Positions 2,057 through 21,847 of a DNA stretch of 64,000 bases are shown in pieces. Position 1 is the stretch's first letter. The number at the start of each line of letters is the position of its first letter. The notes under the pieces were generated by a model. The model was not told where the DNA came from, did not search any database, and saw only the letters and a list, made by a program, of their open reading frames with translations. Location of the stretch: positions 1 through 64,000 of the IMG/VR virus record IMGVR_UViG_3300046810_000466. The stretch is one strand, 5' to 3'. This DNA is from a virus. Made by a program: the position numbers and the translations under genes.

Positions 2057-2632
2057 TTAGTTGTAACGACCAATACCTTGGCGCCATGCAGCAACTCGTT
2101 GACACTGATACGGACGATCCTGTTTACACAGGGTTTCCATGAATGTCAGCGCTTGATCTACCTTTTCATTTGGGTAAATCGTTACAGCGTAAACATTGGC
2201 GATCCGTTCATACGTTTCTTCCGAATGCATTTGAATGTTACTGCGGCGTTCTTCGAGCAGCTTTGGGTAGTGGAGAAAAGAGATAGCATGACCCCATTCA
2301 TGGGCAATGATAATGTCTTGTTCTTGTTTTGGTAGTTCACACATGTCCGTATTGAGACGAATGATGAACTTGACAGCATCAGTATCAGCCCATCTGCCTG
2401 CATGGCCATTCAGACGAACAAAGCGATAGCGCTTGATAATTTCGCCATGCTCAACCGATACTTGGGATAATGTCCGAGCACGGGCTGCTTCAAACTCCTG
2501 TTCTGCTCGCAGCATGCAGCGCTCAACGTCTATGCCCTTGATGGTAACCGAATGTTCGACGACGGACGCAGCTTCTTGAGAGAACGAGTTCAGCGAAAAT
2601 AACAGGCACAAAGTAAAAAGGAATTGTTTCAT
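2057..2632 (-). CDS. Exported metalloprotease-like protein (HEWGH)
   Basis: 191 residues. The N-terminus MKQFLFTLCLLFSLNSFSQ is a typical signal peptide: positive start, hydrophobic core, and a plausible cleavage near residue 18-20. Residues 111-115 are HEWGH, a match to the zinc-binding HExxH signature of zincin metallopeptidases. The following helix with EETYERIANVYAV could supply the third ligand, which I cannot assign with certainty. Cysteines at 39, 98 and near the C-terminus could form disulfides outside the cytoplasm. The gene has its own terminator (2025-2052) and sits after the hairpin at 2726-2749, so it is probably a separate transcription unit inside the fibre module. Its base composition is poorer in GC than its neighbours, so it may be acquired. 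An envelope-acting peptidase or lysis accessory is possible; the substrate is unknown. Confidence 0.6.
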   Translation of the reverse strand: MKQFLFTLCLLFSLNSFSQEAASVVEHSVTIKGIDVERCMLRAEQEFEAARARTLSQVSVEHGEIIKRYRFVRLNGHAGRWADTDAVKFIIRLNTDMCELPKQEQDIIIAHEWGHAISFLHYPKLLEERRSNIQMHSEETYERIANVYAVTIYPNEKVDQALTFMETLCKQDRPYQCQRVAAWRQGIGRYN

Positions 2633-2773: not shown

Positions 2774-5700
2774 TTACGCGTACGCAACTGCACTAGCCAG
2801 AGCCGCATCCATCGTCCACGGAATCTGATACGTATCGCTATCGATTGCCGCGACAACTGAAGCCAGCGTATAGCCGCCACTCGAACCCAGGAACAGTTTA
2901 TTGTTCGCGGTGGAAACACTGGTCCAAGCTGTTGAGGCTTTTGGCAGTGTACGAGTGGTCCACGTAATACCATCCGGTGACGTGATCAGGGTCGATGAAC
3001 CTTGACCCAGAGCAACGAACAACGAGCCAACACAACCGGTGAACGCCCAGGTACTGCCAGTTGGAGCTGGCGGCATGGTACGTACGGTCCATGTAGCACC
3101 GTCTGGGGAGGTCAATGCAAAGCCCGTGGTACTAAACGCGCAGAACACCGAACCATTCCAATACACCGACGTGAATGTCGCTGCACCGATACCGTTACCG
3201 ATATCGCCAGTCGACCACGTAGCGCCGCCATCGGCAGAAGTCAGCGCCAGACTACCGCTGATCATGCAGTAGATCCCGAGGGATTGACTCCATGCTACCG
3301 CGCCTTGAACAGTGCCACCACCACCTGGCGTAACCGCAGTCCAGGTAATGCCATCTGGCGACGTCATGACCGTGTTGGAGCTGACGAGTACGAACGTGCC
3401 ATTACCAGTTGTCATTGACACCCAAGTCAACGAGTTAGGCAAGACACGTTGAGTCCATGTCGCACCGTCTGGCGACGTCGCTGCAATCGTACCGCCTGGA
3501 ATAACTGCGCAGAACACTGTTCCGTTCCACGCCACGTACTTCCAGTTACCAGCAACTGGCATTGGGCGCTGTGTCCAGTTGATGCCATCCACCGAAGTCA
3601 GCACGAAGGTCGCACCAGTCACACCGTTAACCGTCGCAACATACACACTGCCGTTCCATGCGACTTGGTTAACGGAGAGCGCAGCACTGACATGACCCGT
3701 GTACAGGCTCACTGCATCCGAGCTATACACGTTGATACCCGCGTTTGCCAAGAACAGACCTTTACCAGCGCCACTGGCCGTAGCTACCGGCGCTGCTGTG
3801 ATCGGAAGCGCCGTACTGCGTTGCGTCCATACACCACCGTCAAGACTGGTATACGCAGCAGATGCAGTGCTAGGGACGATCACAAATGAACCGCCCACAA
3901 CACCGCAAAGTGACATGCTCGCAAAGGTAGGATTGGCAGTCGGAGTTGCCCACGTAATGCCATCAGGGCTAGCGATACCGTTCTGGTTAGCCAGAGCTAT
4001 GGCAGCGAAAGTACTATTGCCGTAAGCAACTCCAGCCCACGTCCCACTCGGTACTACCCGTTGAGTCCAGGTGATCCCGTCTGGCGAGGTGGAACCATTC
4101 GTGCTATTGCCAAGGGTAACAAACACACCGTTACCGAAAGCAATCGAACTCCAGTTAGAACTAGCCGACAACACCCGTTGAGTCCAGGTAATGCCGTCCG
4201 GTGATGTTGCGGCCACCGAACTACCAGTTCCAACAGTAACGAACACGCCGTTACCAAACGCCACAGCGCGCCAGTTGACGTTCGTTGGCAAGACGCGCTG
4301 CGTCCAGGTGATACCATCTGGGCTAGTAGCAGCGATAGTACTGCTGCCAGCAATGGCAACGAACACACCGTTGCCGAACGTGATCCCTTGCCAGTTAGCA
4401 CTTACAGGCAAGACCCGTGCTGTCCAAGTGATGCCGTCTGGTGACGTAGCGGCGATAGTACTGCCCCATGCAACAGCACAGAACACCGTGCCATTCCATG
4501 CAACGGAATACCAACCACTGCTCGACGGCATTGCCCGTTGAGTCCAGTTGATACCATCCGGGGATGTCGCCGCAGTTGTGCTACCGTTCGCAACCGCAAC
4601 GAAGAGACCGTTGCCGAACGTAACTGACTGCCAGCTGACACTTGCAGGCAGAGCACGCAGTGTCCAAGCGATACCGTCTGACGACGTTGCTACCGTGGTG
4701 CTGCTTTGTCCGATTGCGACGAACACGCCGTTACCGAAAGCCATGCATGCCCAGCTAGCAGCAGACGGCAACTTCGGCGTGTACCAGGTCAGCGCATCTG
4801 CACTCGAATAGATTGCAGAGGCCGAATTAACTACGAACTTCGAACCATTGTGCGCCAATCCCGCCTGAACAACTGCAGCCGGAAGAGAAGCATGCTGCCA
4901 CTTCAGACCATCGGTGGTGCTGCACAAAGTGCTCGAGGCGCCCGTACTTGCTATTGCAACCCGTGTACCAGACGACGCATTGATAAAACTCAATGCGGTA
5001 TAGCTCAGCATCTTTCGAGTCCAAGTCACACCGTCTGGCGACGTAGTGGCAAAGGTGCTATTACTAGCTACGGCACAGAACACGCTACCGTTCCAAACGA
5101 TTGACACCCATCCACCACCGCCAGATGGCGCGGTTGCCGAAGTCCAGGTAATGCCGTCTGGCGACGTAGCAACGGCACTACTACCGTTTGCAACAGCGCA
5201 GAACACCGTACCGTTCCACGCGATCGCAGTCCAGTTCAAACTACTCGGCAAGACGCGCTGCGTCCAGGTGATACCATCTGGGCTAGTGGCCGCGATGGTG
5301 GCACCGTTTGCAACAGCAACATACACACCGTTACCGTAGGTGACGGCTTGCCAAGTGGTGCTAACAGGCAAGACACGCTGTGTCCACGTGATACCATCCG
5401 GGGATGTCGCAGCGATGGTAGTGTTGTAGGCAACAGCAACGAACACGCCGTTGCCGAACGTAACTGACTGCCATGCACTACTTACTGGTAATGCCCGCTG
5501 GGTCCAGGTAATGCCGTCTGGCGACGTCGCAGCAATCGAACTACCGTTTGCGACGGCGACAAAGACACCGTTGCCGTAGGTCATTGACTGCCAGCTAACG
5601 CCTGCTGGCAAGACACGTTGTGTCCAAGTCACACCGTCTGGCGACGTCGCTGCAATGGTACTGCCCAGTGTAACGGCAACGAACACACCGTTACCGTAGG

Positions 5701-8700
5701 TGACGGCTTGCCAGTTAGCGCTCACCGGCATTGCGCGAAGCGTCCAGTTGATGCCGTCTGAGCTGGTGGCGGCGAGACCGCTGCTTTGTGCGATAGCAAC
5801 GAAAACACTGTTACCAAAGGCGACTGATTTCCAGGTGATACTCGCCGGCAGTTCCTGATTTTTAACTGTCCAGGTAATGCCATCCAGGGAAGTAGCCACC
5901 GCTGCATTGCCGCCGGTTGCTGTGGCGCAGAACATGCTACCATTCCAAGTAAGGCCATACCAGCTAGCACTCAACGGCATCACGCGTTGTGTCCAAGTCA
6001 CGCCATCTGGGCTGGTGGCTGCGATGGTGCCGGCACTGGCCACTAACGCGCAGAACACTGTTCCGTTCCAAACAATCGTTTGCCAGCTAGCACTTACTGG
6101 CAAGACGCGCTGCGTCCAGGTAATGCCGTCTGGCGATGTTGCTGCGATGGAAGTGCCACTTGCTACGGCGCAGAAGACGGAGCCGTTCCAAGCGATTGAC
6201 GTCCAGGGGCTACTCACTGGCATGGAACGTGCTGTCCATGTAATGCCGTCCGGAGAGGTAGCTGCAACGATATCGCCGAAGATAACAGCGCAGAACACAC
6301 TGCCGTTCCATGCAACGGAATACCAGTTACCACTCTGAGGCATCGCGCGTTGGGTCCACGTGATGCCGTCTGGACTGGTCACTGCGATACCTGTGGTGGA
6401 TGACACAATAACAAAGGTGCCATTGCCATAGGCAATATCTGTCCAGCTAGCACTTACTGGCAAGACGCGCTGCGTCCATGTGATGCCGTCGGTGGACGTC
6501 GCGGCATTAACCGAGGCGTTTGCCGTAACGACGAAGATGCCGTTGCCGAAAAAGAGGTTTGACCAGTTACCGCTTGTTGGCATGGTGCGCCGGGTCCAAG
6601 TCACCGCATCTGGCGATGTCGCTACAATGTTATTGCTGGTGGCGACGAAGATGCCGTTGCCGAAAGCAACCGATCCCCAGTTATCGGTCGTTGGCAACAG
6701 GGCATTGGCAGCAATCCAAGTTACGCCGTTATCATTACTGATGTAGACGTTCGTAATTGCCACCGCGATCAAGCGCGCGCCAACAGAAGTAATGGAGGTA
6801 CCGGCGCTGCCTGGCACAAGACGCAATGTCCAGGTAATGCCATCTGGCGATGTGGCGACCACGTTACGAAGGCTGGATGCAGCGCAGAACACCGTACCGT
6901 TCCAGGTAATCGACTGCCATGCTTCCGATGCTGGCAATTTCGACTTAGTCCAGGTCAGGCCGCCATCGGTACTGTAGGCCGCAGCATCTGAACGAGTAGC
7001 CGCCGCTGGACCAGACACAGCCACGTAACGATCACCGCCGAAAGCCATTGCCGTCCAACCGGTCGAGTATGGCATAGCTGGCATCATATCCGTCAGTGAC
7101 GTGACCATGCCGTCAGGCAGAGCCAAGGAAGCCAGATCCGTATTCGCGGCTTTCGATACAGCGCCGCCGCGAGTCGTAACCTGATAACCTGCCAGCTGAA
7201 TGCCTGCGGTAACATCATCCAACAGTGCCACTGTACCACTCTTGTTGGGCAGGTCGTATTGACGTTCTGTGGTGTTGGTGTTACTGAACAGCGACGTGAT
7301 GGTGCCGGCGACGTTCTTCATCTTCAGCTGGTACGACGCGGACAGGCCAGCGTAGCCGTTGGCGGCATCGCGCGCCGTAACGTTTTCTGGCACATAACCA
7401 ATATTTGTCTCCAGCACATCCCAGTTAGCGGCATTTTGCCCTGGATTGTCAACCAGCGCCCGCACGGAATCGCCAACGGCAACCGCAACTCCACTCAGTT
7501 GACCTGCCACCGAGATGAAGAACAAGTTACCTTTCTTGATAGCGCCGCCGGCGCCAGTTCCGCCGGTAGCTGGGTACGCGTTGCCTGAAGCGTTCCAGCT
7601 GCCACAATCAACGACAACGCCAGTGGTAACAGCGTCGACCAGCGTCTTTACAGCCAAGGACGTGGGGTAGGTTACGTCGCTTGGAGCGCCGAAATTAACC
7701 ACCTTGTTCGCAACAGCTTCCGCACCCAGCGAAGCCAGTGTCTGGTCACCCGTGTTGCTGCCGGTAACAACAGTTGCACCCAACTTGGCCAAGAGGCCCG
7801 CTTGTGTCTCATCACCGGTATTCGAACCAGTTACTGCGGTGGCGCCGAGTTTGCCCAGAATACCAGCCTGGGTCTCATCGCCAGTATTGGCGCCGGACAG
7901 GGTGCTGATGCTCAGTTTCGATTTGATGGACGCAGTAGTTTCATCACCGGTATTGCTGCCGCTCACCTGATCGAGGGCGGCACGGTTAGTGTGGTCAATC
8001 GCCGCTTTCTCGGCAGGAGTAACGAACACCTTGGTGCCTGATTCCGTGATCGAAGCGGCAGGCTGCGAACCGGTGTGATTGGCGCGATCGAGCAGGAACG
8101 CATCGGCCTGGTTGGCAGTGAAACCGGCAGGATTGGAAGCGTTGTAGGGAACGAAGCCCAAGTTCGACTCCATGCCGTCCCATTTCGCAGCCACTTGACC
8201 TGGATTGTCTTCCAGGGCACGGAAGCTGTCGCCCACGTTGTACGACACGCCACCCAGAACACCAGGAGCGTTAACGTACCACAGGTTGCCCTTTTGGATG
8301 GAGCCGTCTACGGCCGAGCCACCGGTGGTTGGGAACAGGCCGCCGGATGCATCCCAGCTGCCGCGGTCATTGAGAACACCGACCAACGCGGAGTCGATGG
8401 CGCCTTTGACGGCCTTCGTGGTTGGATATTTTTCGTCGTTGACCACGTTGAAGTTGGTCGCTTTGTTAGCCGAGACTTCTTTCGTTGCCAGTGCCGAATT
8501 GACGGCAGACTGTTGGGCAAAGATGATGTTGGCGTCAATCAGCTTCTGTTCGATACCTGCGCCGGTTTCATCACCAGTGTTGACACCGGTAACTTGATCG
8601 AGAGCGGTGCGATTTGCATGCACGACACCTTCGACGGCCGTTTCCACATCGGCTTGGGTAGCCAGATGGATGTCAGCATTTTCCAGCTTCGCCATGATAC

Positions 8701-8935
8701 CAACAGCAGTCTCGTCGCCGGTATTGGCATCAGCCACGGCTTGAACTTGATCAGCCAGACCGGAGTAGTCGCCGAGGATATTCTTTTGGAGTTTACGGAT
8801 CGAATCAATTGATCCGCCACCAGGCAGGGCTGCGCTGGTTTCGTCGTCGCCTGTGACGACGGTGTGCATAATTGCACTGTCAGCAACGAAGGAAGCTTTC
8901 GCGGCTTCCAGGTCTTGATCATTTACTGGGGGCAT
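2774..8935 (-). CDS. Giant tail fibre with Asp-box repeat propellers
   Basis: 2053 residues; ribosome site AAAGGA eight bases before the ATG. Three zones are visible. Residues about 70-420 carry repeats of the type G-x-NTGDET-x4-I-x2-KL, plus a module with VLNDRGSWDAS, NVGDSFRAL, FVPYNASNPAGFTANQADAF and NHTGSQ that is typical of fibre shafts. A second copy of part of that module follows at about 430-520. From about residue 630 to 2010 there are about 33 repeats of 40-42 residues with the core ATSPDGITWTQRVLP and a strand such as YGNGVFVAVA. The diverged copies STDGGLTW, SNDNGVTW and SADGGATW match the Asp-box/BNR motif SxDxGxTW exactly, so the repeats are most likely beta-propeller blades. 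The protein ends in a short tail without a repeat. A receptor-binding adhesin is the likely role. Confidence 0.8.
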   Translation of the reverse strand: MPPVNDQDLEAAKASFVADSAIMHTVVTGDDETSAALPGGGSIDSIRKLQKNILGDYSGLADQVQAVADANTGDETAVGIMAKLENADIHLATQADVETAVEGVVHANRTALDQVTGVNTGDETGAGIEQKLIDANIIFAQQSAVNSALATKEVSANKATNFNVVNDEKYPTTKAVKGAIDSALVGVLNDRGSWDASGGLFPTTGGSAVDGSIQKGNLWYVNAPGVLGGVSYNVGDSFRALEDNPGQVAAKWDGMESNLGFVPYNASNPAGFTANQADAFLLDRANHTGSQPAASITESGTKVFVTPAEKAAIDHTNRAALDQVSGSNTGDETTASIKSKLSISTLSGANTGDETQAGILGKLGATAVTGSNTGDETQAGLLAKLGATVVTGSNTGDQTLASLGAEAVANKVVNFGAPSDVTYPTSLAVKTLVDAVTTGVVVDCGSWNASGNAYPATGGTGAGGAIKKGNLFFISVAGQLSGVAVAVGDSVRALVDNPGQNAANWDVLETNIGYVPENVTARDAANGYAGLSASYQLKMKNVAGTITSLFSNTNTTERQYDLPNKSGTVALLDDVTAGIQLAGYQVTTRGGAVSKAANTDLASLALPDGMVTSLTDMMPAMPYSTGWTAMAFGGDRYVAVSGPAAATRSDAAAYSTDGGLTWTKSKLPASEAWQSITWNGTVFCAASSLRNVVATSPDGITWTLRLVPGSAGTSITSVGARLIAVAITNVYISNDNGVTWIAANALLPTTDNWGSVAFGNGIFVATSNNIVATSPDAVTWTRRTMPTSGNWSNLFFGNGIFVVTANASVNAATSTDGITWTQRVLPVSASWTDIAYGNGTFVIVSSTTGIAVTSPDGITWTQRAMPQSGNWYSVAWNGSVFCAVIFGDIVAATSPDGITWTARSMPVSSPWTSIAWNGSVFCAVASGTSIAATSPDGITWTQRVLPVSASWQTIVWNGTVFCALVASAGTIAATSPDGVTWTQRVMPLSASWYGLTWNGSMFCATATGGNAAVATSLDGITWTVKNQELPASITWKSVAFGNSVFVAIAQSSGLAATSSDGINWTLRAMPVSANWQAVTYGNGVFVAVTLGSTIAATSPDGVTWTQRVLPAGVSWQSMTYGNGVFVAVANGSSIAATSPDGITWTQRALPVSSAWQSVTFGNGVFVAVAYNTTIAATSPDGITWTQRVLPVSTTWQAVTYGNGVYVAVANGATIAATSPDGITWTQRVLPSSLNWTAIAWNGTVFCAVANGSSAVATSPDGITWTSATAPSGGGGWVSIVWNGSVFCAVASNSTFATTSPDGVTWTRKMLSYTALSFINASSGTRVAIASTGASSTLCSTTDGLKWQHASLPAAVVQAGLAHNGSKFVVNSASAIYSSADALTWYTPKLPSAASWACMAFGNGVFVAIGQSSTTVATSSDGIAWTLRALPASVSWQSVTFGNGLFVAVANGSTTAATSPDGINWTQRAMPSSSGWYSVAWNGTVFCAVAWGSTIAATSPDGITWTARVLPVSANWQGITFGNGVFVAIAGSSTIAATSPDGITWTQRVLPTNVNWRAVAFGNGVFVTVGTGSSVAATSPDGITWTQRVLSASSNWSSIAFGNGVFVTLGNSTNGSTSPDGITWTQRVVPSGTWAGVAYGNSTFAAIALANQNGIASPDGITWATPTANPTFASMSLCGVVGGSFVIVPSTASAAYTSLDGGVWTQRSTALPITAAPVATASGAGKGLFLANAGINVYSSDAVSLYTGHVSAALSVNQVAWNGSVYVATVNGVTGATFVLTSVDGINWTQRPMPVAGNWKYVAWNGTVFCAVIPGGTIAATSPDGATWTQRVLPNSLTWVSMTTGNGTFVLVSSNTVMTSPDGITWTAVTPGGGGTVQGAVAWSQSLGIYCMISGSLALTSADGGATWSTGDIGNGIGAATFTSVYWNGSVFCAFSTTGFALTSPDGATWTVRTMPPAPTGSTWAFTGCVGSLFVALGQGSSTLITSPDGITWTTRTLPKASTAWTSVSTANNKLFLGSSGGYTLASVVAAIDSDTYQIPWTMDAALASAVAYA
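2880..7060 (-). repeat. Tandem ~125-base coding repeats (about 33 copies)
   Basis: Coding repeat of about 123-126 bases inside the giant fibre gene. Neighbouring copies are also very similar at DNA level (for example the recurring CCAGGT(A/G)ATGCCGTCTGGCGA on the plus strand). The copy count was made by eye from the SPDGxTW core. Such arrays can gain or lose units by recombination. Confidence 0.85.
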
Positions 8936-8974: not shown

Positions 8975-9658
8975 TTATTGCGGAGCACTCGGAGCGATGG
9001 AGGTGTAGTTCCAGTAGCCAGGAGTAGCCATCATGGACAGCGTTTCATTCAACGCGCCAGCAACAACCACCATTGGTGGCGGCAGCTCAGGATCGCCGTT
9101 TGGATAATGCAGACCGCCCAGTTGGGTATACTGAATGTTATCCAGATCCCAAGCATCCGGGAGAATGCGGAGGTTAACGCCACCAACGAAGATCTTACTC
9201 GCCGCGTTCGCTTCAAAGCGCACATACGCGTTAGCGTACGGGGGCGGTCCTTCGAACACAGGGAGTTGAGCATCGAACACGTCTTCAGGGCGAAGATTGA
9301 TGCGATAGAATTCGTTGATATCGGGCAGCAGATCGAGCAAGTTGTCGTGCTCATTCTTAGCGATGCCGTCGATGGTGTAGGGATAGCGAGTCGATTCCGT
9401 GTCGTCCGTACGGAACATGTCACGGACACGAATGCGATTGTACTTGATGTTGGCTTGGTTGATATAGCCTGAGTTTGCGGCCGGTGAAACAGTCAACGCC
9501 GTACGGGTGTTGTTGAATGTTTCGCGGCCGGAAACAGGATCGGGGGCGATCGAGATCGAACTGAGTACAACGTCGGAAGGTTTGATGTTCCGGCCGTTCT
9601 CCTCATTGATCAAGGCCACCAAGATCGAATCAGGATCTTGAGTGAGGTCAATTGCCAT
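8975..9658 (-). CDS. Virion protein, paralogue family member B1
   Basis: 227 residues, starting MAIDLTQDPDSILVALINEEN. It shares with the gene at 15848 both the N-terminal pattern (I...LIN..N......DV......) with NTRTAL...A...GY.....IKYNRIRV, and the C-terminal pattern S-x-IF-x-G-x3-L-x-I......DL.....T-x-L-x-GL-x-YP. It is longer than its three relatives by a C-terminal extension after the YP motif. No enzyme motif is seen. It lies directly upstream of the giant fibre gene in the same direction (39 bases between them), so a fibre-attachment or baseplate-peripheral role is plausible but unproven. Confidence 0.65.
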   Translation of the reverse strand: MAIDLTQDPDSILVALINEENGRNIKPSDVVLSSISIAPDPVSGRETFNNTRTALTVSPAANSGYINQANIKYNRIRVRDMFRTDDTESTRYPYTIDGIAKNEHDNLLDLLPDINEFYRINLRPEDVFDAQLPVFEGPPPYANAYVRFEANAASKIFVGGVNLRILPDAWDLDNIQYTQLGGLHYPNGDPELPPPMVVVAGALNETLSMMATPGYWNYTSIAPSAPQ

Positions 9659-9788: not shown

Positions 9789-10706
9789 TTAGTTTGCAAC
9801 AAACTCTTGGTAAGTTTGCGGCCAGCCACCAGAGTAATCGTAACTGTCCGGATCAGTGGCAGCCATCATGGCCTGACGATGCTGCTCTGCAATAACGAAC
9901 AATTCGCTCTCTTTGTCTACGCCTGCATCGATGATCTGGTGCAACAGGTTCTGGGTGAAAGGAACAAACTCGCCCGACATGGTTTTCCATGACGTGAAGA
10001 CTGTCGTTGGAGGAATCCCTTTACGGGTCAGCGAACCGTCCAACAGGGCGTACTGGTTACGGCTAGCCGCATCAGTCCAGAACCAGTACGACTTGGTGCC
10101 GACCGTCAGCTGTACACCACCGGCCTTACGGCGTTCACGTTCGTCGTGGATGCGCAACCATTGATCATCCTGCTTTTCTTTTTTGGTGTACGCGATTGCT
10201 GGCGCCTGCATCATGGCAACGAATTCATCCGTGATGCGGGTAACGCTTTCAACGTCAATAGCTCGCAGGAAATCCAACTCAGCAGGAATAGCTGGCCACG
10301 CAATCGTGTACAGCGAATTCTGTTGCGGGATATCACGCAGAGCTTGGCGGAAGGAGCTGATCCGACGTTGTGAGACTACGTCGTACGACGCCCAACGATC
10401 GCTGGTAGTGACAGCGTCCGTAGCTTCCAGCAATGGGTTACGCATCGAGCGAACCCAGTCGTCAACAGTTGGCGTGCACATCGTGACAATCGCATCAATG
10501 CTCGCCTGACTGATACCGAACTGAACAGCAGTGTCGACCGTCATGAAACCAACCCCATGGTTCTGGGACCAGGCCAAGTTAGCCAATGACTCGTCAGACA
10601 GATCGCAGAGACTGGCAATGTTACGCCACGTGTCAGGGAGTTGAATCAAGTCAACTGCCACCTTTGCATCCAAATCGCACTGCAGATACCATTTTGCATT
10701 CTTCAT
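9789..10706 (-). CDS. DUF4376-like fibre-associated protein
   Basis: 305 residues; ribosome site AAGGATAGCAAC before the ATG. The C-terminal 120 residues (from about 180) read like DUF4376: a charged helix ending HDERERRKAGGVQL, then a short strand with W-x-D-x2-SR-x2-Y, a W-x2-MSGEFVPFT segment and a helix containing AEQHRQAM. That domain is known from phage tail-fibre and fibre-assembly-type proteins. The N-terminal half is unrecognised but rich in Trp and helix-forming residues. The gene lies between fibre genes in the same orientation. I infer a role in fibre assembly or attachment; DUF4376 itself has no established activity. Confidence 0.55.
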   Translation of the reverse strand: MKNAKWYLQCDLDAKVAVDLIQLPDTWRNIASLCDLSDESLANLAWSQNHGVGFMTVDTAVQFGISQASIDAIVTMCTPTVDDWVRSMRNPLLEATDAVTTSDRWASYDVVSQRRISSFRQALRDIPQQNSLYTIAWPAIPAELDFLRAIDVESVTRITDEFVAMMQAPAIAYTKKEKQDDQWLRIHDERERRKAGGVQLTVGTKSYWFWTDAASRNQYALLDGSLTRKGIPPTTVFTSWKTMSGEFVPFTQNLLHQIIDAGVDKESELFVIAEQHRQAMMAATDPDSYDYSGGWPQTYQEFVAN

Positions 10707-12391: not shown

Positions 12392-15130
12392 TTATTTTGC
12401 GTCTGCAACTGCCAAGCTACCGAAGTACACACCGTTGTCGACAAAGAACGTCCACACGTCAATCGCATTCGCCGTCGTAGTCCGTGGTGGGAGGAAGCCG
12501 CCTGCCCACTTGATGGTGTTGCCGAACGCCAGACCACGTCCAGCCGTGCCGTCGTTGGTAGTGATCAGCGTGAAGCTGAACAACTCACCATTGGTCGGTG
12601 TAGGTGGATTGCTAAACGTTACTGTGGTGTTGGCCGCAACCGCAACTTTGAAGACGACTGCTTGGTCGCCAGTGTTGAGGTCCACTGCTGTAGCTGCTGT
12701 GTTAGCCGTAATCGAACGAGACTTATCCAACAGGCCGCCCACCAAAGGCGCACCAGTCGCACGATTGTAGGACACGCAGTGCACAACACCACCAGGACGA
12801 CCGACAAACGTCGCGTAATCGCCGGCGGCGGTCTTGATGTCCAGGCCGGTCGGCAACACCAGGTTCACGCTATTGGTCAGGGTCAAGATGCCAGAGAACC
12901 GAACCAGACGTTCTGCACCATCAGTCAATACAATCGACGTGATGTTCGTCGTACCAGTGACGTCAACAACGTTACCGGTTGCATTGGTCAGGTTCAGCGC
13001 AGCGATCGAAGCCAAGTCAGCACCACGCGCAACGTCAAACGTACCAACGACGTTCACACCTTTGATAGTCACAGCCAGACGGGTAACAAGGTTGCGGTCA
13101 GCCAATGAAACGTCCGCAGCAGAACCGTTACCAACAACAGTAGCGCCACGAGTGGTGTCCGATGCCACCATGCCAAGACCAGCTGTAGCCTGAGCCGAAG
13201 CTGCGGTTCCTGTTGTCACCAAGCGGCCGCCACTGAACGTACCCGCAGCCAGCGTATTCGTGCTAGGGTTATAGTTCAGCTCCGTATCAGCCTTCAGTGC
13301 GGTCTGGGAATTGATACCGTCGCCGAAGGAAATGTAGTACGTTGCATTGGTGTTGGCGGCATCGTTAAACTTAACCGAACCGTTGACATTCAGGGTTAGT
13401 GGACTACTGCCCAACTTCCCCAGAATTGTGCTTTGATTCTCATCGCCAGTGTTGGTACCAGACACCAGATCGAGCGCAGCGCGATTTGCGTGAGTGATAG
13501 CCACCTTTTCGCCAGCGGTCACAAACACACGACCCACCGTTTCATCAATCGTCAATGCCGATTGCGTGCCGGTATGGCTCGAACGTGCCACCAGATAGGC
13601 GTCGGTTTGGTTGCTAGTGAAACCCAACGGATTCGTAGCGTTATACGGCACGTACCCAATGTTCGATTCCAACACATCCCAGTTCGATGCAACTTGACCA
13701 GGATCATCAACCAGCGCGCGGAAACTGTCGCCAACGTTGACAGCCACTCCACCCAACAGACCGACAACACTAACGAACCACAGGTTGCCCTTCTGAATGC
13801 TTCCAGTAGGGCTAGAACCGCCCGTGGTGGGCCAAGCGTTAGAACTAGCATCCCAACTACCCCGATCGTTCAGAACGCCTGTGAGACGCGTATCCAGATA
13901 GGACCGAACGGCTTGGGTGGTTGGATACAACGTGTTGTTGATCGTGGCGAAGCTGGTTGCTTTGTTCGACAGGTTTTCTTTGATCAGTGCCAGGTTGGTT
14001 AACTCAGCGAAAGCCGCATTCAGCTGGCCTTGGATCTTCCCTATCGCCAGCAACACCGTATCAGCGGCCGCCACCGCTGAATTCGAACCCACCGCATAAC
14101 CAGCCAACACGGACGAGATGGAACGCAGTTGCGTGAAATACAGGTTCAGATTACCTTCGGCCAGCTGATTGGTGCTGTTGAGTACCACGTTCAGCAGGTT
14201 GTAATTGGTGCCGTTCCAGTAGTATACGCCGCCGTTATCTTCAGCGATGTAAATCCGTTTCTGAACCCCAGGCTGAGGAATCACCCCGTAGTTAGCAACT
14301 GTGACCACCGATTCAAACGCAGCGGGCAAGTTCTCGGTCGGCACCAGACGGTTCGCATCCAGCGGTGCTACACCGTTAAGTGCATTGCGGGCACCCAGTG
14401 GCATGATCTCATAGCCGACTTTAGCAACGATGCTCTCACGGGTTTCGTCACCAGCGTTCACACCGGAGATCGAAGGGATCTGCAGCTTTGACAGAATGGA
14501 TGTCTTAGTCTCGTCACCGGTGTTATCGCCAGACAGAACAGTAATGTTCAGCTTGGCACGAATGGTGGCAGTTGTTTCATCGCCGGTATTAGTATTGCTG
14601 TTGATGCCTTTGATGTCACTCTTCAGTGCCAACACGCCGTCGCCATCAGGCAGTTCAATCATGCGGCTGACGTTGTGGTTATGGAACAAATAACTAAAGA
14701 TGCTGTCTGCACCATTCCGGATTGGCAGCTTGGCGCCTTCGTAGCCGAAGTAGCCGCCGACCTTGTTGCGATTGGCTGGCGTTTCACGACCGTCGATCTG
14801 AGCGATCAGGGTTTCAATGGCACCTTGTACAGCAATGGAGAGCGGCAACTCAGATGGCGCCAAGTTCTCAACCTTGTCCAAGTTGAGGTTAGCGCGACCC
14901 CAGGCCTTCTGGTTGTTATCGTAACCGCCATCACCATCAAGGCGCAGTCGGTTACTCAGGTCAGGCACCAGCTGGTCAATGCGTTCAGCTGCCAAGCGGG
15001 CTTGTTTCGCGATGCTAGGGACCGGGCCATTCGGAGTAGCCACATCGGTCTGGTCATCCCCTTTTGCATACTGACCAGCCTTGCTCATGCTGTCTTTAAA
15101 GCCGACAATCAGATTGTCTAATTCGGACAT
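12392..15130 (-). CDS. Long tail fibre protein
   Basis: 912 residues; strong ribosome site AAAAGGAAGAACC. The N-terminal 60 residues resemble the start of the 190-residue protein at 820-1392 (attachment-type segment). Residues about 170-240 contain three G-x-N-(T/A)-GDET-x4-I-x2-K repeats. Residues about 420-600 carry the same VLNDRGSWDAS / NVGDSFRAL / VPYNATNPLGFTSNQTDAY / SHTGTQ module as the giant fibre. The C-terminal 300 residues are beta-rich, with YYISFGDG and an end like that of receptor-binding tips, and contain no Asp-box repeats. The shared module shows the two fibres are assembled from the same parts, with different tips. Likely a second receptor-binding fibre. Confidence 0.8.
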   Translation of the reverse strand: MSELDNLIVGFKDSMSKAGQYAKGDDQTDVATPNGPVPSIAKQARLAAERIDQLVPDLSNRLRLDGDGGYDNNQKAWGRANLNLDKVENLAPSELPLSIAVQGAIETLIAQIDGRETPANRNKVGGYFGYEGAKLPIRNGADSIFSYLFHNHNVSRMIELPDGDGVLALKSDIKGINSNTNTGDETTATIRAKLNITVLSGDNTGDETKTSILSKLQIPSISGVNAGDETRESIVAKVGYEIMPLGARNALNGVAPLDANRLVPTENLPAAFESVVTVANYGVIPQPGVQKRIYIAEDNGGVYYWNGTNYNLLNVVLNSTNQLAEGNLNLYFTQLRSISSVLAGYAVGSNSAVAAADTVLLAIGKIQGQLNAAFAELTNLALIKENLSNKATSFATINNTLYPTTQAVRSYLDTRLTGVLNDRGSWDASSNAWPTTGGSSPTGSIQKGNLWFVSVVGLLGGVAVNVGDSFRALVDDPGQVASNWDVLESNIGYVPYNATNPLGFTSNQTDAYLVARSSHTGTQSALTIDETVGRVFVTAGEKVAITHANRAALDLVSGTNTGDENQSTILGKLGSSPLTLNVNGSVKFNDAANTNATYYISFGDGINSQTALKADTELNYNPSTNTLAAGTFSGGRLVTTGTAASAQATAGLGMVASDTTRGATVVGNGSAADVSLADRNLVTRLAVTIKGVNVVGTFDVARGADLASIAALNLTNATGNVVDVTGTTNITSIVLTDGAERLVRFSGILTLTNSVNLVLPTGLDIKTAAGDYATFVGRPGGVVHCVSYNRATGAPLVGGLLDKSRSITANTAATAVDLNTGDQAVVFKVAVAANTTVTFSNPPTPTNGELFSFTLITTNDGTAGRGLAFGNTIKWAGGFLPPRTTTANAIDVWTFFVDNGVYFGSLAVADAK

Positions 15131-16868: not shown

Positions 16869-18230
16869 TTAAGTTTCGCTACTATCCTCAACTGGTTTGA
16901 CAAACACACTCAACGTTACTGTGCTCGTGTAACGGGCAGAAGTTGGTCCAGGTTCACGCAAGCTCGTATACTCGTGCACACCCAGCAAGACACCCATCGC
17001 TTCTTTGATGTCTTCGCCGTCCAAGTACATGACCTTGGTTGGCATGCCAGGATACAACAAGCTCCGGTCTGCATTCTCCCACACCAGACTAATGCCGCTA
17101 CCCTGACGCTTTGCTAGCGCCGAATACTCCACAAAGGGATTGGCGTTGATCTGACGCAGCGCTGTAGTAACGTAGTTCATTTTGTTCTTGCGCTCTTCAC
17201 CAATTGCTTCGGTGTTGAGTTTGGCTCGGGATGCGATGGCCTTATTGCCCTTGGTGACAACAAAGTCTTCCATCATCTTCGATGCATCTGCAAAGCGAAT
17301 GCCGTTACCATCATTCAACTGGGCGGTGTTACTCAGATCCCGGAACGACACTTGACCCGTGGCAATGACAACCAGGTTATCGCCATCCTTCCGGAAGGTA
17401 CGCTCAATACCCGGCATGCGTTTCTCCGGGACATTGATCACTGTCAGCGTTGGACTGCCGTCATTGAAACGGGTGATGTCGAACGTTGGGTAAACATACC
17501 AGTGATTATTCTGCAGATAGTAACCCAACCCTGCCGCATACAAGCCACCGCAGTGGTAGTGGATGTGGTGAGGGACGTCGACTAACTGCAAGCCCTGAGG
17601 GATGATCAACATCTCCCGCTTCTTTTGATTCGAAGCAGGGATCATGTCCACCCCTTTGAGTTTACGATCGTCGTTGACCTTTGCTGACTGCGACCCTTTG
17701 GTCAGAACCGCTTTCACCACATCTTCGCCAGTCATGTTCCGGTAGATACCACCCACCGGGATCATGCGGATTTGTTCCAGCGATTTGTTGGTCAACTGGA
17801 ATTGCACCGTCAGGATGTCCATCCGGTTCAAATCTTCTTCCGACGTGATATTCCCCACTGATGCTTCGATGATGGGGTTGCCAGTGTCAATCATGGTGGC
17901 GGTATAACGTTCGGTCTGGGGAGCGCTATCTTCATCCACAGAGTCGCTACGCTCGCCAACACTTTGCCGAGTCAACTCGATGTCGAGGTCATCCAGGAAA
18001 GGATAGACACGCTTAGCGTACGTCCCCAACGGAATGACAACCGTGACCAAGATGAAGTCGGTATAGTTGTTCAAGTAATCCTGATTGAAGTCGATCGACA
18101 AGATGCGGAATGGGATGACGTAGTCTTCCCCATGGAAGATGGTCAGCTTCCATGCCAAGTGCACTGGCTTCTCACCACTCTGGATAATATCTTCGACTTC
18201 ATTCCAAAGAGAAGAGTCATCAATGATCAC
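16869..18230 (-). CDS. Virion structural protein (baseplate-type candidate)
   Basis: 453 residues starting at GTG (18230), which overlaps the TGA of the upstream gene in the form GTGA; the ribosome site GGAGGTGG lies inside that gene. The N-terminal region WKLTIFHGEDYVIPFRILSI with YTDFILVTVVIPLGTY reads as a beta domain like those of tail/baseplate hub proteins. The middle has VTKGNKAIASRAKLNTEA, and the C-terminus has another beta segment (SARYTSTVTLSVFVKPVED). No enzymatic motif is visible. The overlap with its neighbour implies coordinated production. The baseplate assignment is inference from operon context and the beta-rich pattern. Confidence 0.6.
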   Translation of the reverse strand: MIIDDSSLWNEVEDIIQSGEKPVHLAWKLTIFHGEDYVIPFRILSIDFNQDYLNNYTDFILVTVVIPLGTYAKRVYPFLDDLDIELTRQSVGERSDSVDEDSAPQTERYTATMIDTGNPIIEASVGNITSEEDLNRMDILTVQFQLTNKSLEQIRMIPVGGIYRNMTGEDVVKAVLTKGSQSAKVNDDRKLKGVDMIPASNQKKREMLIIPQGLQLVDVPHHIHYHCGGLYAAGLGYYLQNNHWYVYPTFDITRFNDGSPTLTVINVPEKRMPGIERTFRKDGDNLVVIATGQVSFRDLSNTAQLNDGNGIRFADASKMMEDFVVTKGNKAIASRAKLNTEAIGEERKNKMNYVTTALRQINANPFVEYSALAKRQGSGISLVWENADRSLLYPGMPTKVMYLDGEDIKEAMGVLLGVHEYTSLREPGPTSARYTSTVTLSVFVKPVEDSSET

Positions 18231-18928
18231 GAACCACCTCCCCAGTTCATGCCTTCACGTTTCTGGTGCTCGAACAACCGCTCCAGGCTAACGCGTTTCG
18301 GCAAGTTTGGATCGTCTTTGACTTCCATCATTTCCGGTTCACGCAACGGATCAGGGCGCGGCGCATCTTGACCCACGCCATAGTCACGACCCATGCCACC
18401 CGCTGTTGCTGATGGCGCTGCAGCGGCTTCTGTGCGACGTTGACGACCCAGTTTACTCAGACCAGAGAAACGGTCCGAGGAGAAGCGTTGTGCCATTTTG
18501 GAGTGCGGTGTATCCGACTTCATCTGGTAGCGTGCGTGACCGAAGATAGCCTCTGCAAACTTGTCCAGACGAATCAGCTCGTCCAGCGTCTTGACGTCAT
18601 TGGTCACGTTCTCCGACAACGTCATCACATTGCGCATGGCAATGAGGTGATTGGTGATCAGCTGATAAATCGTTTTGGTGTCTTCGTACTTGACGATAGC
18701 CACCGTGTAACCACGATTGAACATGTCTTCCATCTGTGCGATGTGCAGCATCACGACGGTTTCGTTCTTCGCCATCTCTCGGTCAACTTCTTCATTGCCG
18801 GTAGTTAGCGTGCCGTACAGTTTAATTTCTTCCACTGAACGGACTTTAAGTGGATTGACCCGGACGTAGAACAGCTTGTTGAATAAGTACCAAGCTGTAT
18901 TACGTTGGGACTCTTTCACATAGCCCAT
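18227..18928 (-). CDS. Unknown virion-operon protein
   Basis: 233 residues from the ATG at 18928. I chose this start over one 25 codons upstream because GGAGG lies six bases before it and it forms a TAATG overlap with the stop of the previous gene. The N-terminal part (MGYVKESQRNTAWYLFNKLF) is followed by a largely helical stretch rich in Met, Asn and charged residues, then a low-complexity Ala/Pro/Gly/Arg segment (about residues 170-200) and a short conserved-looking end, RVSLERLFEHQKREG. No family is recognised. Overlaps on both sides (TAATG and GTGA) place it firmly inside one translated unit with 18928-20292 and 16869-18230. Confidence 0.65.
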   Translation of the reverse strand: MGYVKESQRNTAWYLFNKLFYVRVNPLKVRSVEEIKLYGTLTTGNEEVDREMAKNETVVMLHIAQMEDMFNRGYTVAIVKYEDTKTIYQLITNHLIAMRNVMTLSENVTNDVKTLDELIRLDKFAEAIFGHARYQMKSDTPHSKMAQRFSSDRFSGLSKLGRQRRTEAAAAPSATAGGMGRDYGVGQDAPRPDPLREPEMMEVKDDPNLPKRVSLERLFEHQKREGMNWGGGS

Positions 18929-20292
18929 TACAACCTCCGAATAGCGGAGCGCATCAGTGCCATCAGGAATGGCATTTGATAGAATTGCTCCAGTGGTCCC
19001 CATGACGTATAGGTTTTTGCCAAGTCAGTCAGAGTCGACAAGTCGTACGCTTTGCCATCCAAGTAATCATGGAAAGCAATCTCCAGGCCGGACTGACCTG
19101 GATGCGTGTCAGCATAGAACGCCGGTGAGAAGATGTAGGTGTCGTATGCCACAGCGTTCACTGCAGGTGCCTTGTTACTTGGCAGGCCATACAGCTCACT
19201 GATCTGGATCAGCTCGAACAGATCCACCAGACGGGTTGGCGTAGGTTTGATCGCTACGCTGCTGATCGTCTTGGTGTAGTTCTTGCGACGGTAGTCTTCG
19301 GACAGATCCGGGTCAGCTGGATAGACCGCGAAGTCGATACCGGCATAACGAATGCTGTCCATCACGGGGTCAGCCGAGAAAGCACGGGTCAACACCAGAC
19401 CAATCTTACTCATGCAGTTGATCAGTTCCTTGCGACGTTTAGTCAGCAAAGCGGTCCAGACATTGGAGATGTCGTAGTTGTCGTCTTCACCAACGTTCAA
19501 CTCACGCAGGTACTTGATGTTCGGATGATTCTCATCACGGAACATCTTCAACACTGCGCGGGTCAGGAAAGGATCGTACATCGAACGGTCTTGACCAGGC
19601 AGAAGCAGCGTGCGATATTCTTGACTGAAGAAGCGGGTGAAGTAGAAATCCACCAACTCCTCGTAGTAATTACGCAGCTCTTTGATCAGGCGATTTTCAT
19701 CGTACGAGATCAACGGGTTCTGACCGTTCTCCAGGAAGTCACGTTCGAAGTAAAGATTCTCTACCACCTTGCTGTTCAGATCATTGACCCGGTTGTCCTG
19801 CTCAGAGTAACTGACTTGCACGTAGTCAATTACGAATGCGGCGTCTTTGTAGATGGAGCGGCGTTCTGATGAGGTCACCATGAACAAGCCCTCACGCCCA
19901 TCGCCGACATCGGCCAAGAAGTGATCGCCCTCGTTCGGGACCAAGCCGCAAGGGAACACATTGGCTTGACCAGTGACATTGAATCCCTTGCTGCCGGGAT
20001 CTTGCGACTGGTTCAATGCCGTTGTTACCTTCAGTTCAAACTTCTGAATCAGCTTGTATTGTTGGTAGACCGCAGGACGATCCAGACTTTGTCCGGACAG
20101 TGCATTGTCGGCACCCAACACTTGGCTGTAGTAATTCACAGTCCATGACGCACCTTCAACGTGCGTCAGCAGCGACGTCGCTGGTTCGTACGTGGTGTCA
20201 ACTGTCACTCCACGGAACTCTTTAGCGGTCACTAGCACAGCAACCGGTTGTTCTACCGGTGGCGTGGTATTGGTATCACCAATGATTGGCAT
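18928..20292 (-). CDS. Virion structural protein
   Basis: 454 residues from the ATG at 20292 (ribosome site AAGAGGC just after the stop of the upstream gene); a start 14 codons earlier would lie inside that gene. The N-terminus is Pro/Val-rich. A beta domain spans about residues 25-180 (for example GASWTVNYYSQVLGAD and DVGDGREGLFMVTSSERRSI). A helical region follows (FTRFFSQEYRTLLLPGQD), and a C-terminal part ends YQMPFLMALMRSAIRRL. I do not recognise a domain of known function, but length, context and beta-then-helix layout match phiKZ-like tail/baseplate proteins. It ends in TAATG, coupling it to the next gene. Confidence 0.6.
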   Translation of the reverse strand: MPIIGDTNTTPPVEQPVAVLVTAKEFRGVTVDTTYEPATSLLTHVEGASWTVNYYSQVLGADNALSGQSLDRPAVYQQYKLIQKFELKVTTALNQSQDPGSKGFNVTGQANVFPCGLVPNEGDHFLADVGDGREGLFMVTSSERRSIYKDAAFVIDYVQVSYSEQDNRVNDLNSKVVENLYFERDFLENGQNPLISYDENRLIKELRNYYEELVDFYFTRFFSQEYRTLLLPGQDRSMYDPFLTRAVLKMFRDENHPNIKYLRELNVGEDDNYDISNVWTALLTKRRKELINCMSKIGLVLTRAFSADPVMDSIRYAGIDFAVYPADPDLSEDYRRKNYTKTISSVAIKPTPTRLVDLFELIQISELYGLPSNKAPAVNAVAYDTYIFSPAFYADTHPGQSGLEIAFHDYLDGKAYDLSTLTDLAKTYTSWGPLEQFYQMPFLMALMRSAIRRL

Positions 20293-20305
20293 AACAGCCT
20301 CTTTC

Positions 20306-21847
20306 TTAAACTGAGTGGTCGTGGTTCGTTTCAACGAAGAAGATCTGAACCGTGTTGAAATGGTTCAAAGCGCTCATTGGGTTGTTGTTCGGACGCACGT
20401 TTTGAATGGCAGTAACCAGTGCCACCTTGGAAATGAAGTTATCGCCGATGAGTGGCGGAATCAATCCACGAGGCAGCAAGGTAGGGTCGATCGCCATCAA
20501 GATCTGAATGGCAGCTTGACCATGTTCTTGCAGTCGTGCCAGCGCGTTACCGCGAAGCAGCTGCAAGTCCGTCAGCAGACCAACACGAATGTGGTGTTGG
20601 TGGCGCAGGTCAGGCTCAGTCAGCAACGTGATGTTCAGGTCAGCATCGATTGCAATCGAAGGTGGATCAGGTTCGATCTGCGACGTGTTCTTGTACAACG
20701 CTACATGGAGCGCCGACAGACAAGGTCGGAGCAAATAACTCTGCTCTGACTTCATGTACTCGATAATCTCAGGTGTGAATTTCTTCTGGCCGAGATCTTG
20801 CAAGCTCAGCACCTGTCGTGTGTTGGCCTGGTCGATGTCAAACAACACCGTGACCACCCGACGACTCTTGATTGGGATGGACGCTGGAACGAACTCATCG
20901 AACGTAGGGATCGCATAACCAAAATCAAAACGCTGCTTGTCACTGATCTGCGCACCTTCAAATGGCGCCAAGACACGGCTGTGGTAAGCATAGCTCTTAA
21001 CTGTGTCAGTGTGGTCGCGCAGCGGAGGCTGACGGTATTTCAGGTCGATCAGCTGGTTATGCACCATCAATGGATAGACCATTACCACGGTCTCTGGTCG
21101 CTGGTAACCGAACTTGTACGAGAAGCTGGTGATTACTGCTTCACCATCGCCACCGCGTGCTGCCTCTTCTGGTAGATCGAAATCAAACCAGCCCTGTACC
21201 CGCACTTGTGTTTCGGGCACTACCCACAGGGAAGCCGACCCACTCATGTTCGTCAGCTTGCGCATCTTAGGCAAACGATTAGCATCGAAGTACTCGTCGA
21301 ATGTATCGCCATAACCGGCCACATTCTCCCGCAAGCCATGCAGGTACTTCAGAATGTACAGGTACTCTTCCGGCACTCCGAAACTGTAGGTGATATCATG
21401 CAGGTTCAGATCACGGTGTTGACTGATCTTGGCCTTCATAGCCGCACGCCACTGGATGGCCTGGTTCTTATTGCTGGCCCGGTACTTGACAGTGATAGTC
21501 GAATCCATCGTCGCGTAAGCCGGTTTCATGATAATGTCCAGAGCAGGATCGTAGAAGATCAACAGGTTCTCTGGATCAAACATCGGTTCGTTCGGCACGC
21601 GATCGGGAGCATAGATCTCGCTCACCTCCAACTCGATTTTATCGTTGTGCACGAACATGTTCAGGTCATCGCCGTGCTCGGCAATGGCCGATTGCAATTG
21701 CTTCTGCTTCTCCATATCGCCGAAGTAAACTAAGTTCGTCTTCGGGCTAATGCCGGTCAATTGCATTAATTGGCGAACGACTTCCAGCATCACGGGACGC
21801 GTGATGCTTTCCGTGGTCTCCGGGATTGGTAACAAAGTCATTGGCAT
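20306..21847 (-). CDS. Virion structural protein
   Basis: 513 residues; ribosome site AGAGGAAAG. First gene of the coupled set 21847 to 16485. The N-terminal helix contains VMLEVVRQLMQLTGI followed by NLVYFGDMEKQKQLQSAI. The middle region has a Tyr-rich stretch (HDITYSFGVPEEYLYILKYL), and a beta domain carries WFDFDLPEEAARGGD and FSYKFGYQRPETVVMVYPLM. The C-terminus contains NPMSALNHFNTVQIFFVE. No catalytic motif is seen. Position directly after the hairpin/TATG element at 21902-21937 suggests that transcription of the set begins here. A tail or baseplate component is likely; the precise role is unknown. Confidence 0.6.
   Translation of the reverse strand: MPMTLLPIPETTESITRPVMLEVVRQLMQLTGISPKTNLVYFGDMEKQKQLQSAIAEHGDDLNMFVHNDKIELEVSEIYAPDRVPNEPMFDPENLLIFYDPALDIIMKPAYATMDSTITVKYRASNKNQAIQWRAAMKAKISQHRDLNLHDITYSFGVPEEYLYILKYLHGLRENVAGYGDTFDEYFDANRLPKMRKLTNMSGSASLWVVPETQVRVQGWFDFDLPEEAARGGDGEAVITSFSYKFGYQRPETVVMVYPLMVHNQLIDLKYRQPPLRDHTDTVKSYAYHSRVLAPFEGAQISDKQRFDFGYAIPTFDEFVPASIPIKSRRVVTVLFDIDQANTRQVLSLQDLGQKKFTPEIIEYMKSEQSYLLRPCLSALHVALYKNTSQIEPDPPSIAIDADLNITLLTEPDLRHQHHIRVGLLTDLQLLRGNALARLQEHGQAAIQILMAIDPTLLPRGLIPPLIGDNFISKVALVTAIQNVRPNNNPMSALNHFNTVQIFFVETNHDHSV

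What the first reader, a model, noticed from the sequence alone, without database searches (positions are those of the whole stretch)
2774..8935. 2053-residue fibre with about 33 Asp-box-like blades
The repeat core ATSPDGITWT recurs about every 41 residues, and diverged copies STDGGLTW, SNDNGVTW and SADGGATW match the Asp-box SxDxGxTW. Some 33 blades could form four or five beta-propellers in a row, a very large display for a phage fibre. Near-identical DNA copies make unit number variable. Sialidase-like catalytic residues were not recognised, so a binding role is more likely than cleavage.
Basis: partly seen in the sequence, partly recalled or inferred. Interest (0 to 1): 0.55.

Follow-up and report, generated by a model that had tools for sequence, protein, structure and literature searches.

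The report
Phage fibre with 35 propeller blades
A giant bacterial virus appears to carry a tail protein whose outer two thirds is a chain of 35 similar blades, enough for five ring-shaped propeller domains, most likely used to hold on to the host cell surface; the domain type is known, the length of the chain is unusual.

Summary
The gene lies on the MINUS strand (2774-8935, 2053 aa). Residues 623-2028 hold 34 Asp-box-like motifs; a profile built only from other organisms finds 35 blade units. Thirty boxes are the short form S-x-D-x-x-x-W, three are canonical, one is degenerate. DNA copies are not near-identical (mean 48%, best pair 76%; synonymous choice nearly random), so easy gain and loss of units is not supported.

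The propeller reading holds: Pfam DUF6242 and EPTP are over cut-off; an AlphaFold model of blades 1-17 has one confident domain (pLDDT block means 82-98) that superposes on solved propellers (Z 33). In related ORFs seven units is the commonest count, with 14 and 21 also seen; 35 = 5 x 7, and the one weak point of the array splits it 28 + 7.

Context: fibre module of a phiKZ-like jumbo phage. The gene shares N-terminal modules with a neighbouring fibre and follows a DUF7941 gene; the corresponding stretch of Burkholderia phage FLC9 carries Laminin-G lectin-like domains instead. A multivalent surface-binding role is the best inference; catalysis is not excluded. phiKZ gp131 is a precedent with one propeller. 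New variant of a known kind.

The parts
2774..8935 (-). gene for the 2053-aa fibre (P0001); AAAGGA lies 8 nt before the ATG
   Evidence: upstream sequence
7076..8935 (-). residues 1-620: presumed attachment/shaft part with five NTGDET and one NTGDQT motifs; residues 142-347, 325-390 and 402-520 are 53-59% identical to parts of the fibre encoded at 12392-15130
   Evidence: of the libraries scanned none matched this part
2852..7069 (-). residues 623-2028: array of 35 blades with 34 Asp-box-like motifs
5159..5998 (-). residues 980-1259 (about blades 10-16): the confident domain of the model, 10-residue pLDDT block means 82-98, superposes on whole solved propeller chains
   Evidence: ring register partly set by the alignment supplied
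6215..7069 (-). blades 1-7, propeller 1 if rings are sequential (inferred boundary)
   Evidence: count
5363..6214 (-). blades 8-14, propeller 2 if sequential (inferred)
4523..5362 (-). blades 15-21, propeller 3 if sequential (inferred)
3683..4522 (-). blades 22-28, propeller 4 if sequential (inferred)
2852..3682 (-). blades 29-35, propeller 5 if sequential; unit 29 lacks a proper box before it, like the first unit of a ring in relatives
8975..9658 (-). DUF7941 / phrog_1037 virion structural protein, 39 bp upstream of the fibre gene
9789..10706 (-). tail protein / tail fibre assembly-like protein (phrog_2837, phrog_4912)
12392..15130 (-). second fibre (912 aa) sharing N-terminal modules, different C-terminus (phrog_9017 tail fibre protein)
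16869..21847 (-). conserved block of four genes, 33-42% identical to FLC9 gp328-gp331, next to the fibre module

Best explanation
It is a tail-fibre or baseplate-fibre protein of a phiKZ-like jumbo phage. The N-terminal 620 residues attach it to the virion and form the stalk (inferred). The C-terminal 1400 residues fold into short-Asp-box beta-propellers, most likely five rings of seven blades joined without linkers. [quoted passage not shown] the loops of the opposite face differ from blade to blade and would form a row of similar but non-identical pockets. The protein most likely works as a multivalent adhesin for repeated surface sugars such as LPS O-chains, capsule or exopolysaccharide. 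Shown here: repeat, count, predicted propeller fold of one ring, gene context, absence of recent copying. Inferred: five closed rings, orientation, ligand, adsorption role.
For: Pfam DUF6242 80.6 bits (cut-off 29) and EPTP 58.6 (cut-off 21). The profile from other organisms finds 35 units. Complete stop-to-stop ORFs with 3 or more units from 160 related loci: exactly 7 units in 90 of 139 with the window's profile and in 74 of 139 with the independent profile; 14 in 10 of 139; 21 in 3 of 139; of 245 runs away from open ends 147 are 7 long and 5 are 14. By that same run rule the window splits into 28 + 7; apart from unit 1, unit 29 is the only one of 35 whose match starts late in the profile, a mark shown by 52% of first units and 0-2% of the others in 63 seven-unit relatives. 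The viral ORF in L074 also counts 35, as five groups of seven with linkers. AlphaFold model of residues 600-1312: mean pLDDT 80.1, residues 980-1259 at block means 82-98; Z 32.9, 2.1 A over 275 residues with virginiamycin B lyase 2z2n; 283 columns at 0.9 A to a predicted Caudovirales DUF6242 protein. Mean entropy among 15 exact 40-residue units: box turn 0.58 bits, A-B turn 1.03, D-A loop 1.55, B-C loop 2.00, in line with the variable functional top face in PMC2716378 (passages). Context. In named phages 13 records match at 26-35% identity; in four S-CAM9 records and DSL-LC03 the match lies in a gene annotated baseplate wedge. Of six viral relatives scanned, three carry Collagen, Prophage_tail or Laminin_G over cut-off beside the units.
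Against: No direct evidence of virion incorporation or of a ligand. The alignment behind the model contains 7- and 14-unit relatives, so seven-fold closure and its register are not independent of it, and the confident ring (about blades 10-16) does not sit on the sequential borders; the single-sequence model of blades 11-35 failed (pLDDT 37). Similarity between blades shows only a weak signal at lags 7 and 8 (p 0.048 and 0.018, uncorrected for 24 lags) and the two-type blade pattern none. With the independent profile 28 of 139 ORFs count 8 units. Of the divergent blades, 1, 28 and 35 sit at sequential ring borders but 3, 18, 19, 27 and 32 do not. FLC9 and four IMG/VR relatives of the conserved block give no match to this protein in the genome search, so it is not a core part of the lineage; two weak FLC9 hits with filters off are told under Tried and rejected.
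Confidence: 0.6

Rival explanations
1. The propellers are a mainly mechanical part: a long stack of discs that holds a distal binding element or spaces the fibre, with little ligand binding of its own.
For: Nearly uniform blades with conserved cores; variation among blades is modest and mostly among small residues.
Against: Only 25 residues follow the last blade, so there is nothing for it to present; loops vary on the face that Asp-box propellers use for function; the corresponding stretch in FLC9 holds lectin-like Laminin_G domains.
Confidence: 0.2
2. One or more rings are glycan-degrading enzymes (GH33/GH58 sialidase-like or GH74-like) and the protein is a depolymerase.
For: Asp-box propellers in solved structures are mostly glycosidases (PMC2716378, abstract start and passages); GH74 enzymes have tandem seven-bladed Asp-box propellers (same source), and 6p2l_A (named GH74) and 5fkq_B (xyloglucan degradation; GH74 recalled) are among the 50 Foldseek rows shown.
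Against: No [FYLW]RxP or xRIP motif and only 2 Glu (671, 1028) in 1409 residues of array, so three of five sequential rings lack any Glu (that GH33 sialidases need Arg, Tyr and Glu is recalled); GH33 and GH58 propellers are six-bladed (PMC2716378). An Asp-pair mechanism was not excluded.
Confidence: 0.1
3. Rings are nested: blades 1-3 close with 32-35, blades 18-19 close with 27-31, and complete rings 4-10, 11-17 and 20-26 were inserted later.
For: Divergent blades 1, 3, 18, 19, 27, 28, 32 and 35 all fall in the two outer rings and the three inner sets are more uniform; the only three canonical boxes are in blades 1, 3 and 32, all in one outer ring.
Against: Found after looking at the data; blades 2 and 30 are well conserved although outer; the split 28 + 7 with a first-like unit 29 fits the sequential order; the confident ring of the one model, about 10-16, fits neither scheme.
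Confidence: 0.07
4. Ordinary repeat expansion: a recently amplified array whose number varies between isolates, without special function of the number 35.
For: Unit-to-unit protein identity up to 0.78; propellers are amplified from single blades repeatedly (PMC9218822, title, passages and section 16).
Against: Synonymous sites are close to random (0.393 against 0.357) and best DNA identity is 0.76, so copying is old and the protein is kept by selection.
Confidence: 0.08

Closest known systems
phiKZ gp131 C-terminal domain (PDB 4GBF)
   Same: Seven-bladed propeller in a protein at the baseplate periphery of a related jumbo phage (as told in PMC4901313, passages)
   Different: One ring, not five by count; no sequence match of P0001 to any PDB chain at E 0.01
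DUF6242 / EPTP-type propeller proteins of Caudovirales and bacteria
   Same: Pfam models over cut-off; predicted fold of a Caudovirales DUF6242 protein superposes at 0.9 A over 283 columns with 50% identity
   Different: That relative has 299 residues (one ring); here 35 blades, one run by box spacing and 28 + 7 by the rule used for relatives, whose longest runs are 22 and 14
GH74 tandem propellers
   Same: Uninterrupted Asp-box stretch forming two seven-bladed rings (PMC2716378, passages)
   Different: Enzymes with two rings; catalytic residues not looked for here beyond sialidase motifs
Highly repetitive propellers of Pereira and Lupas 2022 (47-blade Penicillium protein; 15-blade Gymnopus protein)
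   Same: Many consecutive blades; 15 blades predicted as rings of 7 and 8, 47 compatible with several partitions (PMC9218822 section 16)
   Different: Those have 81-83% median blade identity; here the mean unit identity is 40% with synonymous sites near saturation; phage fibre context
phi11 receptor-binding protein
   Same: Propeller in a phage adhesin with a proposed sugar site (PMC4901313, passages)
   Different: Five-bladed single ring per chain, Staphylococcus siphophage

Membership tests
Asp-box / short-Asp-box beta-propeller | repeated S/t-X-D/n-X-(G)-X-T/s-W boxes | tested here: met
   30 short, 3 canonical, 1 degenerate of 34
Asp-box / short-Asp-box beta-propeller | four-stranded blades closed into a ring | tested here: met
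   predicted, for about blades 10-16 only, by superposition on whole propeller chains; other rings not confidently predicted
Asp-box / short-Asp-box beta-propeller | short boxes usually in only one or two blades (PMC2716378, passage) | tested here: not met
   30 of 34 boxes are short; a usual property in that 2009 paper, not a strict criterion
DUF6242 (PF19755) | score over Pfam cut-off | tested here: met
   80.6 against 29 bits
EPTP (PF03736) | score over Pfam cut-off | tested here: met
   58.6 against 21 bits
GH33/GH58 sialidase | six blades | tested here: inconclusive
   seven-unit quantum in relatives and a predicted ring of about seven blades speak against it, but no ring is solved
GH33/GH58 sialidase | RIP motif and catalytic Glu (recalled) | tested here: not met
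   no RIP motif, 2 Glu in 1409 residues
GH74 | catalytic Asp pair | not tested
   no catalytic residues mapped
phiKZ gp131 | sequence homology to the solved chain | tested here: inconclusive
   no PDB chain matched P0001 at E 0.01; repeat profile only an antibody chain at E 0.48; low sensitivity for propellers
phiKZ-like jumbo phage | phage-encoded multi-subunit RNA polymerase and core gene homology | tested here: met
   RNAP beta-like gene 49520-51679, 44% to FLC9, 281 records matched; phrog_2962 RNAP beta at 39621-40970; the nucleus-shell gene was not looked for
tail fibre protein | present in the virion | not testable with these tools
   inferred from modules and neighbours

The most novel reading that the evidence does not exclude
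A phage fibre that grew by gain of whole seven-bladed rings (end to end, or inserted into older rings), giving a five-propeller adhesin in which each ring recognises a different variant of a surface glycan, so that one protein acts as a multi-specific receptor array.
Probability: 0.08. Interest if true: 0.65.

Novelty: new variant of a known kind. Interest (0 to 1): 0.38.

Why it matters
If the five-ring reading is right, this is a natural long chain of propellers without linkers in a jumbo-phage adhesin, against the single ring described for phiKZ gp131. It offers an old, diverged test case for how an unbroken blade array partitions into rings, a question left open for the near-identical 47-blade protein in PMC9218822. 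It also suggests that phiKZ-like phages exchange whole classes of binding domain (propeller here, Laminin-G in FLC9) in the same gene neighbourhood.

Tried and rejected
Repeat-number comparison in close relatives: three viral-contig scans gave no relative; an alignment with FLC9 gp328 gave four contigs at 43%, none with a match to P0001 (an empty first look without a positive control among those five, although the same query did match its own record). Weak FLC9 signals against a clean absence: blastp with masking and composition correction off gave gp314 at 22% over 469 columns, E 1e-5, and the unit profile gave gp311 at E 0.0045 (7.8 bits); neither was followed up. Single-sequence AlphaFold of blades 11-35 failed. 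Self-shifted alignment of the window was useless because overlapping rows aligned to themselves. PDB sequence searches with the protein, the repeat profile and two neighbours found nothing useful. NCBIfam and PHROGs give no family for the fibre. The lag analysis and blade types do not fix the ring register. Promoter-like sites were near the shuffle mean and terminator-like sites below it. A beta-helix is not what the model shows. gp131 (4GBF) is not among the 50 rows shown; those lists are filled by other propellers, so that says nothing. 'Not in print' is not claimed; searches made: (DUF6242: 0 papers in the held library).
Full report
OBSERVATION. The ORF 2774-8935 is on the minus strand and encodes 2053 residues. 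From residue 655 to 1986 there are 34 boxes, commonly 40 residues apart. The exact core ATSPDGITWT occurs 10 times. In residues 620-2053 the pattern [ST]xD[GA]xxW matches 30 times; 2000 shuffles gave a mean of 0.13 and a maximum of 3. Only 3 boxes are the canonical eight letters; 30 of 34 are the seven-letter short Asp-box described by Quistgaard and Thirup (PMC2716378, section 5 read); one (residue 1738) fits neither.

COUNT. A unit profile built from 274 units of other ORFs, window excluded, finds 35 units. The first (620-643) lacks a preceding box, as in single propellers: in 63 non-redundant seven-unit relatives the first unit starts late in the profile in 52%, later units in 0-2%. Two of the 35 units score near zero (those at 1756 and 1904), but the box spacing continues through them; the largest step between envelope starts is 43.

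DNA COPIES. Units are on average 40% identical in protein (maximum 78%) and 48% in DNA (maximum 76%); the longest exact repeat is 41 nt. Where two units share an amino acid they share the codon in 39.3% of 7823 pairs, against 35.7% for random use of the codons of the repeat region. The duplications are therefore old and the protein pattern is held by selection.

FOLD. Pfam places the array in DUF6242 and EPTP. The model of residues 600-1312 made with 41 relatives has mean pLDDT 80.1 and pTM 0.60 (five models 64-80); in blocks of ten, residues 980-1259 lie at 82-98, residues 750-969 at 63-87, the ten before the confident domain at 51, and blades 1-3 at 48-80. The confident part aligns over the whole chain of virginiamycin B lyase (2z2n, Z 32.9, 2.1 A over 275 residues; 2z2o_C, Z 33.2, 3.0 A over 283) and with G-beta subunits (Z about 27.7); that these are seven-bladed is recalled. 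Whole-model TM-scores of the 50 Foldseek rows shown are low (0.18-0.32), as expected for several rings in arbitrary orientation. The alignment was made of 7- and 14-unit relatives, so seven-fold closure is in part put in; the single-sequence attempt on blades 11-35 failed (pLDDT 37).

SEVEN AS THE QUANTUM. In 160 related loci (79 from viral contigs, 79 from genome contigs, 2 phage records) 192 ORFs have 3 or more units and 139 of these are complete, stop to stop, within the locus. With the window-derived profile 90 of 139 have exactly 7 units, 14 have 8, 10 have 14, 3 have 21; with the independent profile 74 have 7, 28 have 8, 10 have 14, 3 have 21. Of 245 runs (unit starts at most 56 apart) not touching an open end, 147 are 7 long, 20 are 8, 5 are 14 and one is 22 (L117); 46 are single stray units. 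By the same rule the window gives runs of 28 and 7, because unit 29 is matched only from profile position 19 after the degenerate box at 1738; by boxes or envelopes it is one run of 35. Either way it is longer than the runs found in relatives. L074, a viral-contig ORF that runs off the left edge of its locus, also has 35 units but as five groups of seven separated by linkers. These loci were chosen by similarity to the window's repeats, and some contigs are near-duplicates.

RING REGISTER. Thirty-five is 5 x 7. For sequential rings: besides unit 1, unit 29 is the only unit whose match starts late, as first units of rings do, and it lies at a sequential border; one such unit among 34 would fall on one of the four internal borders (8, 15, 22, 29) by chance in about 12%. 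Against or neutral: blade similarity after removal of blade effects peaks at lags 1 (p 0.007), 8 (0.018) and 7 (0.048), uncorrected for 24 lags, and blade types show no significant lag. Among the most divergent blades, 1, 28 and 35 sit at sequential borders, while 3, 18, 19, 27 and 32 do not. A nested partition would gather these and the three canonical boxes (blades 1, 3, 32) into two outer rings; this was seen after the fact and is offered only as a rival.

CONTEXT. The record is an 85 kb virus contig, possibly a fragment. It encodes an RNA polymerase beta-like protein with matches in 281 phage records, nearest Burkholderia phage FLC9 at 44%, a DNA polymerase (phrog_3011) and another RNAP beta-like protein (phrog_2962), so it is phiKZ-like. 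The fibre gene follows a DUF7941 gene by 39 bp; there are four DUF7941 genes here, and tblastn with one of them reaches 37 records, among them proteins annotated 'bifunctional tail protein' or 'tail fiber protein' in other jumbo phages including Klebsiella phage FBKp24. A tail fibre assembly-like gene (9789-10706) and a second fibre (12392-15130) lie upstream; the second fibre shares 53-59% identical modules with residues 142-520 but has no blade units. In FLC9 the stretch after the homologous block (gp328-gp331) carries Laminin_G_3 domains in gp310, gp314, gp315 and gp316 and DUF7941 in gp310, gp319 and gp325, of nine proteins scanned. Laminin_G_3 is found in FLC9 (10 places) and in four IMG/VR relatives (5-6 each) and not in the 85 kb held of the window's record, while the genome search with P0001 is empty in those five. 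In named phages 13 records match P0001, at 26-35% identity, none over 80% of its length; in four S-CAM9 records and DSL-LC03 the match lies in a gene annotated as baseplate wedge. Of six viral relatives scanned with Pfam, L033 has Collagen, L054 Prophage_tail and L052 Laminin_G over cut-off; L010 has Collagen below cut-off; L016 and L020 only propeller families.

MECHANISM. In Asp-box propellers the box face is structural and the opposite face is functional and variable (PMC2716378, passages). Among the 15 units of exactly 40 residues (of 33 box-to-box units), mean column entropy is 0.58 bits in the box turn and 1.03 in the A-B turn, against 1.55 in the D-A loop and 2.00 in the B-C loop; the A strand is also high at 1.54 (strand borders assigned by eye). 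That the D-A and B-C loops form the top face is recalled. With only 25 residues after the last blade, the array itself is the likely contact surface: a row of similar pockets suited to repetitive polysaccharide. Sialidase-type catalysis is unlikely (no RIP motif, 2 Glu in 1409 residues). The binding role, orientation and ligand are inferred.

COMPARISON. phiKZ gp131 has a single seven-bladed propeller at the baseplate periphery with unconfirmed function (as told in PMC4901313, passages; the original paper was not seen). The largest blade count named in PMC9218822 section 16 is 47, in a fungal protein whose repeats are nearly identical. The present protein is thus a new variant of a known kind: an old, diverged, linker-free 35-blade array in a jumbo-phage fibre.

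Noticed in passing
10724-11569 and 11582-12334 (-): Two paralogous proteins (281 and 250 aa, 45% identical) rich in YNPxxPGN repeats of about ten residues, between the two fibre genes; no PHROG hit for either, and no Pfam or NCBIfam hit for the 281-aa one.
   Followed up: partly
2057-2632 (-): 191-aa protein with a signal-peptide-like N-terminus and HEWGH; weak, below-cut-off Pfam matches to YgjP-like and SprT-like metallopeptidases, right after the fibre gene.
   Followed up: partly
1408-1902, 8975-9658, 15164-15649, 15848-16423 (-): Four DUF7941 genes interspersed with the fibre genes; about a dozen FLC9 proteins of the corresponding stretch match them by blastp at E 0.01, suggesting a fibre docking module.
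   Followed up: partly
2852-7069 (-): The blade array has only 2 Glu against 40 Asp and 73 Trp in 1409 residues, an extreme composition.
   Followed up: no
L117 (936-aa ORF): A Pseudobdellovibrio MAG encodes 22 units of the same kind in one run, the longest among the relatives counted.
   Followed up: no
47386-49428 (+) and 47389-49455 (-): Long open frames of 680 and 688 aa lie on opposite strands of the same stretch.
   Followed up: no
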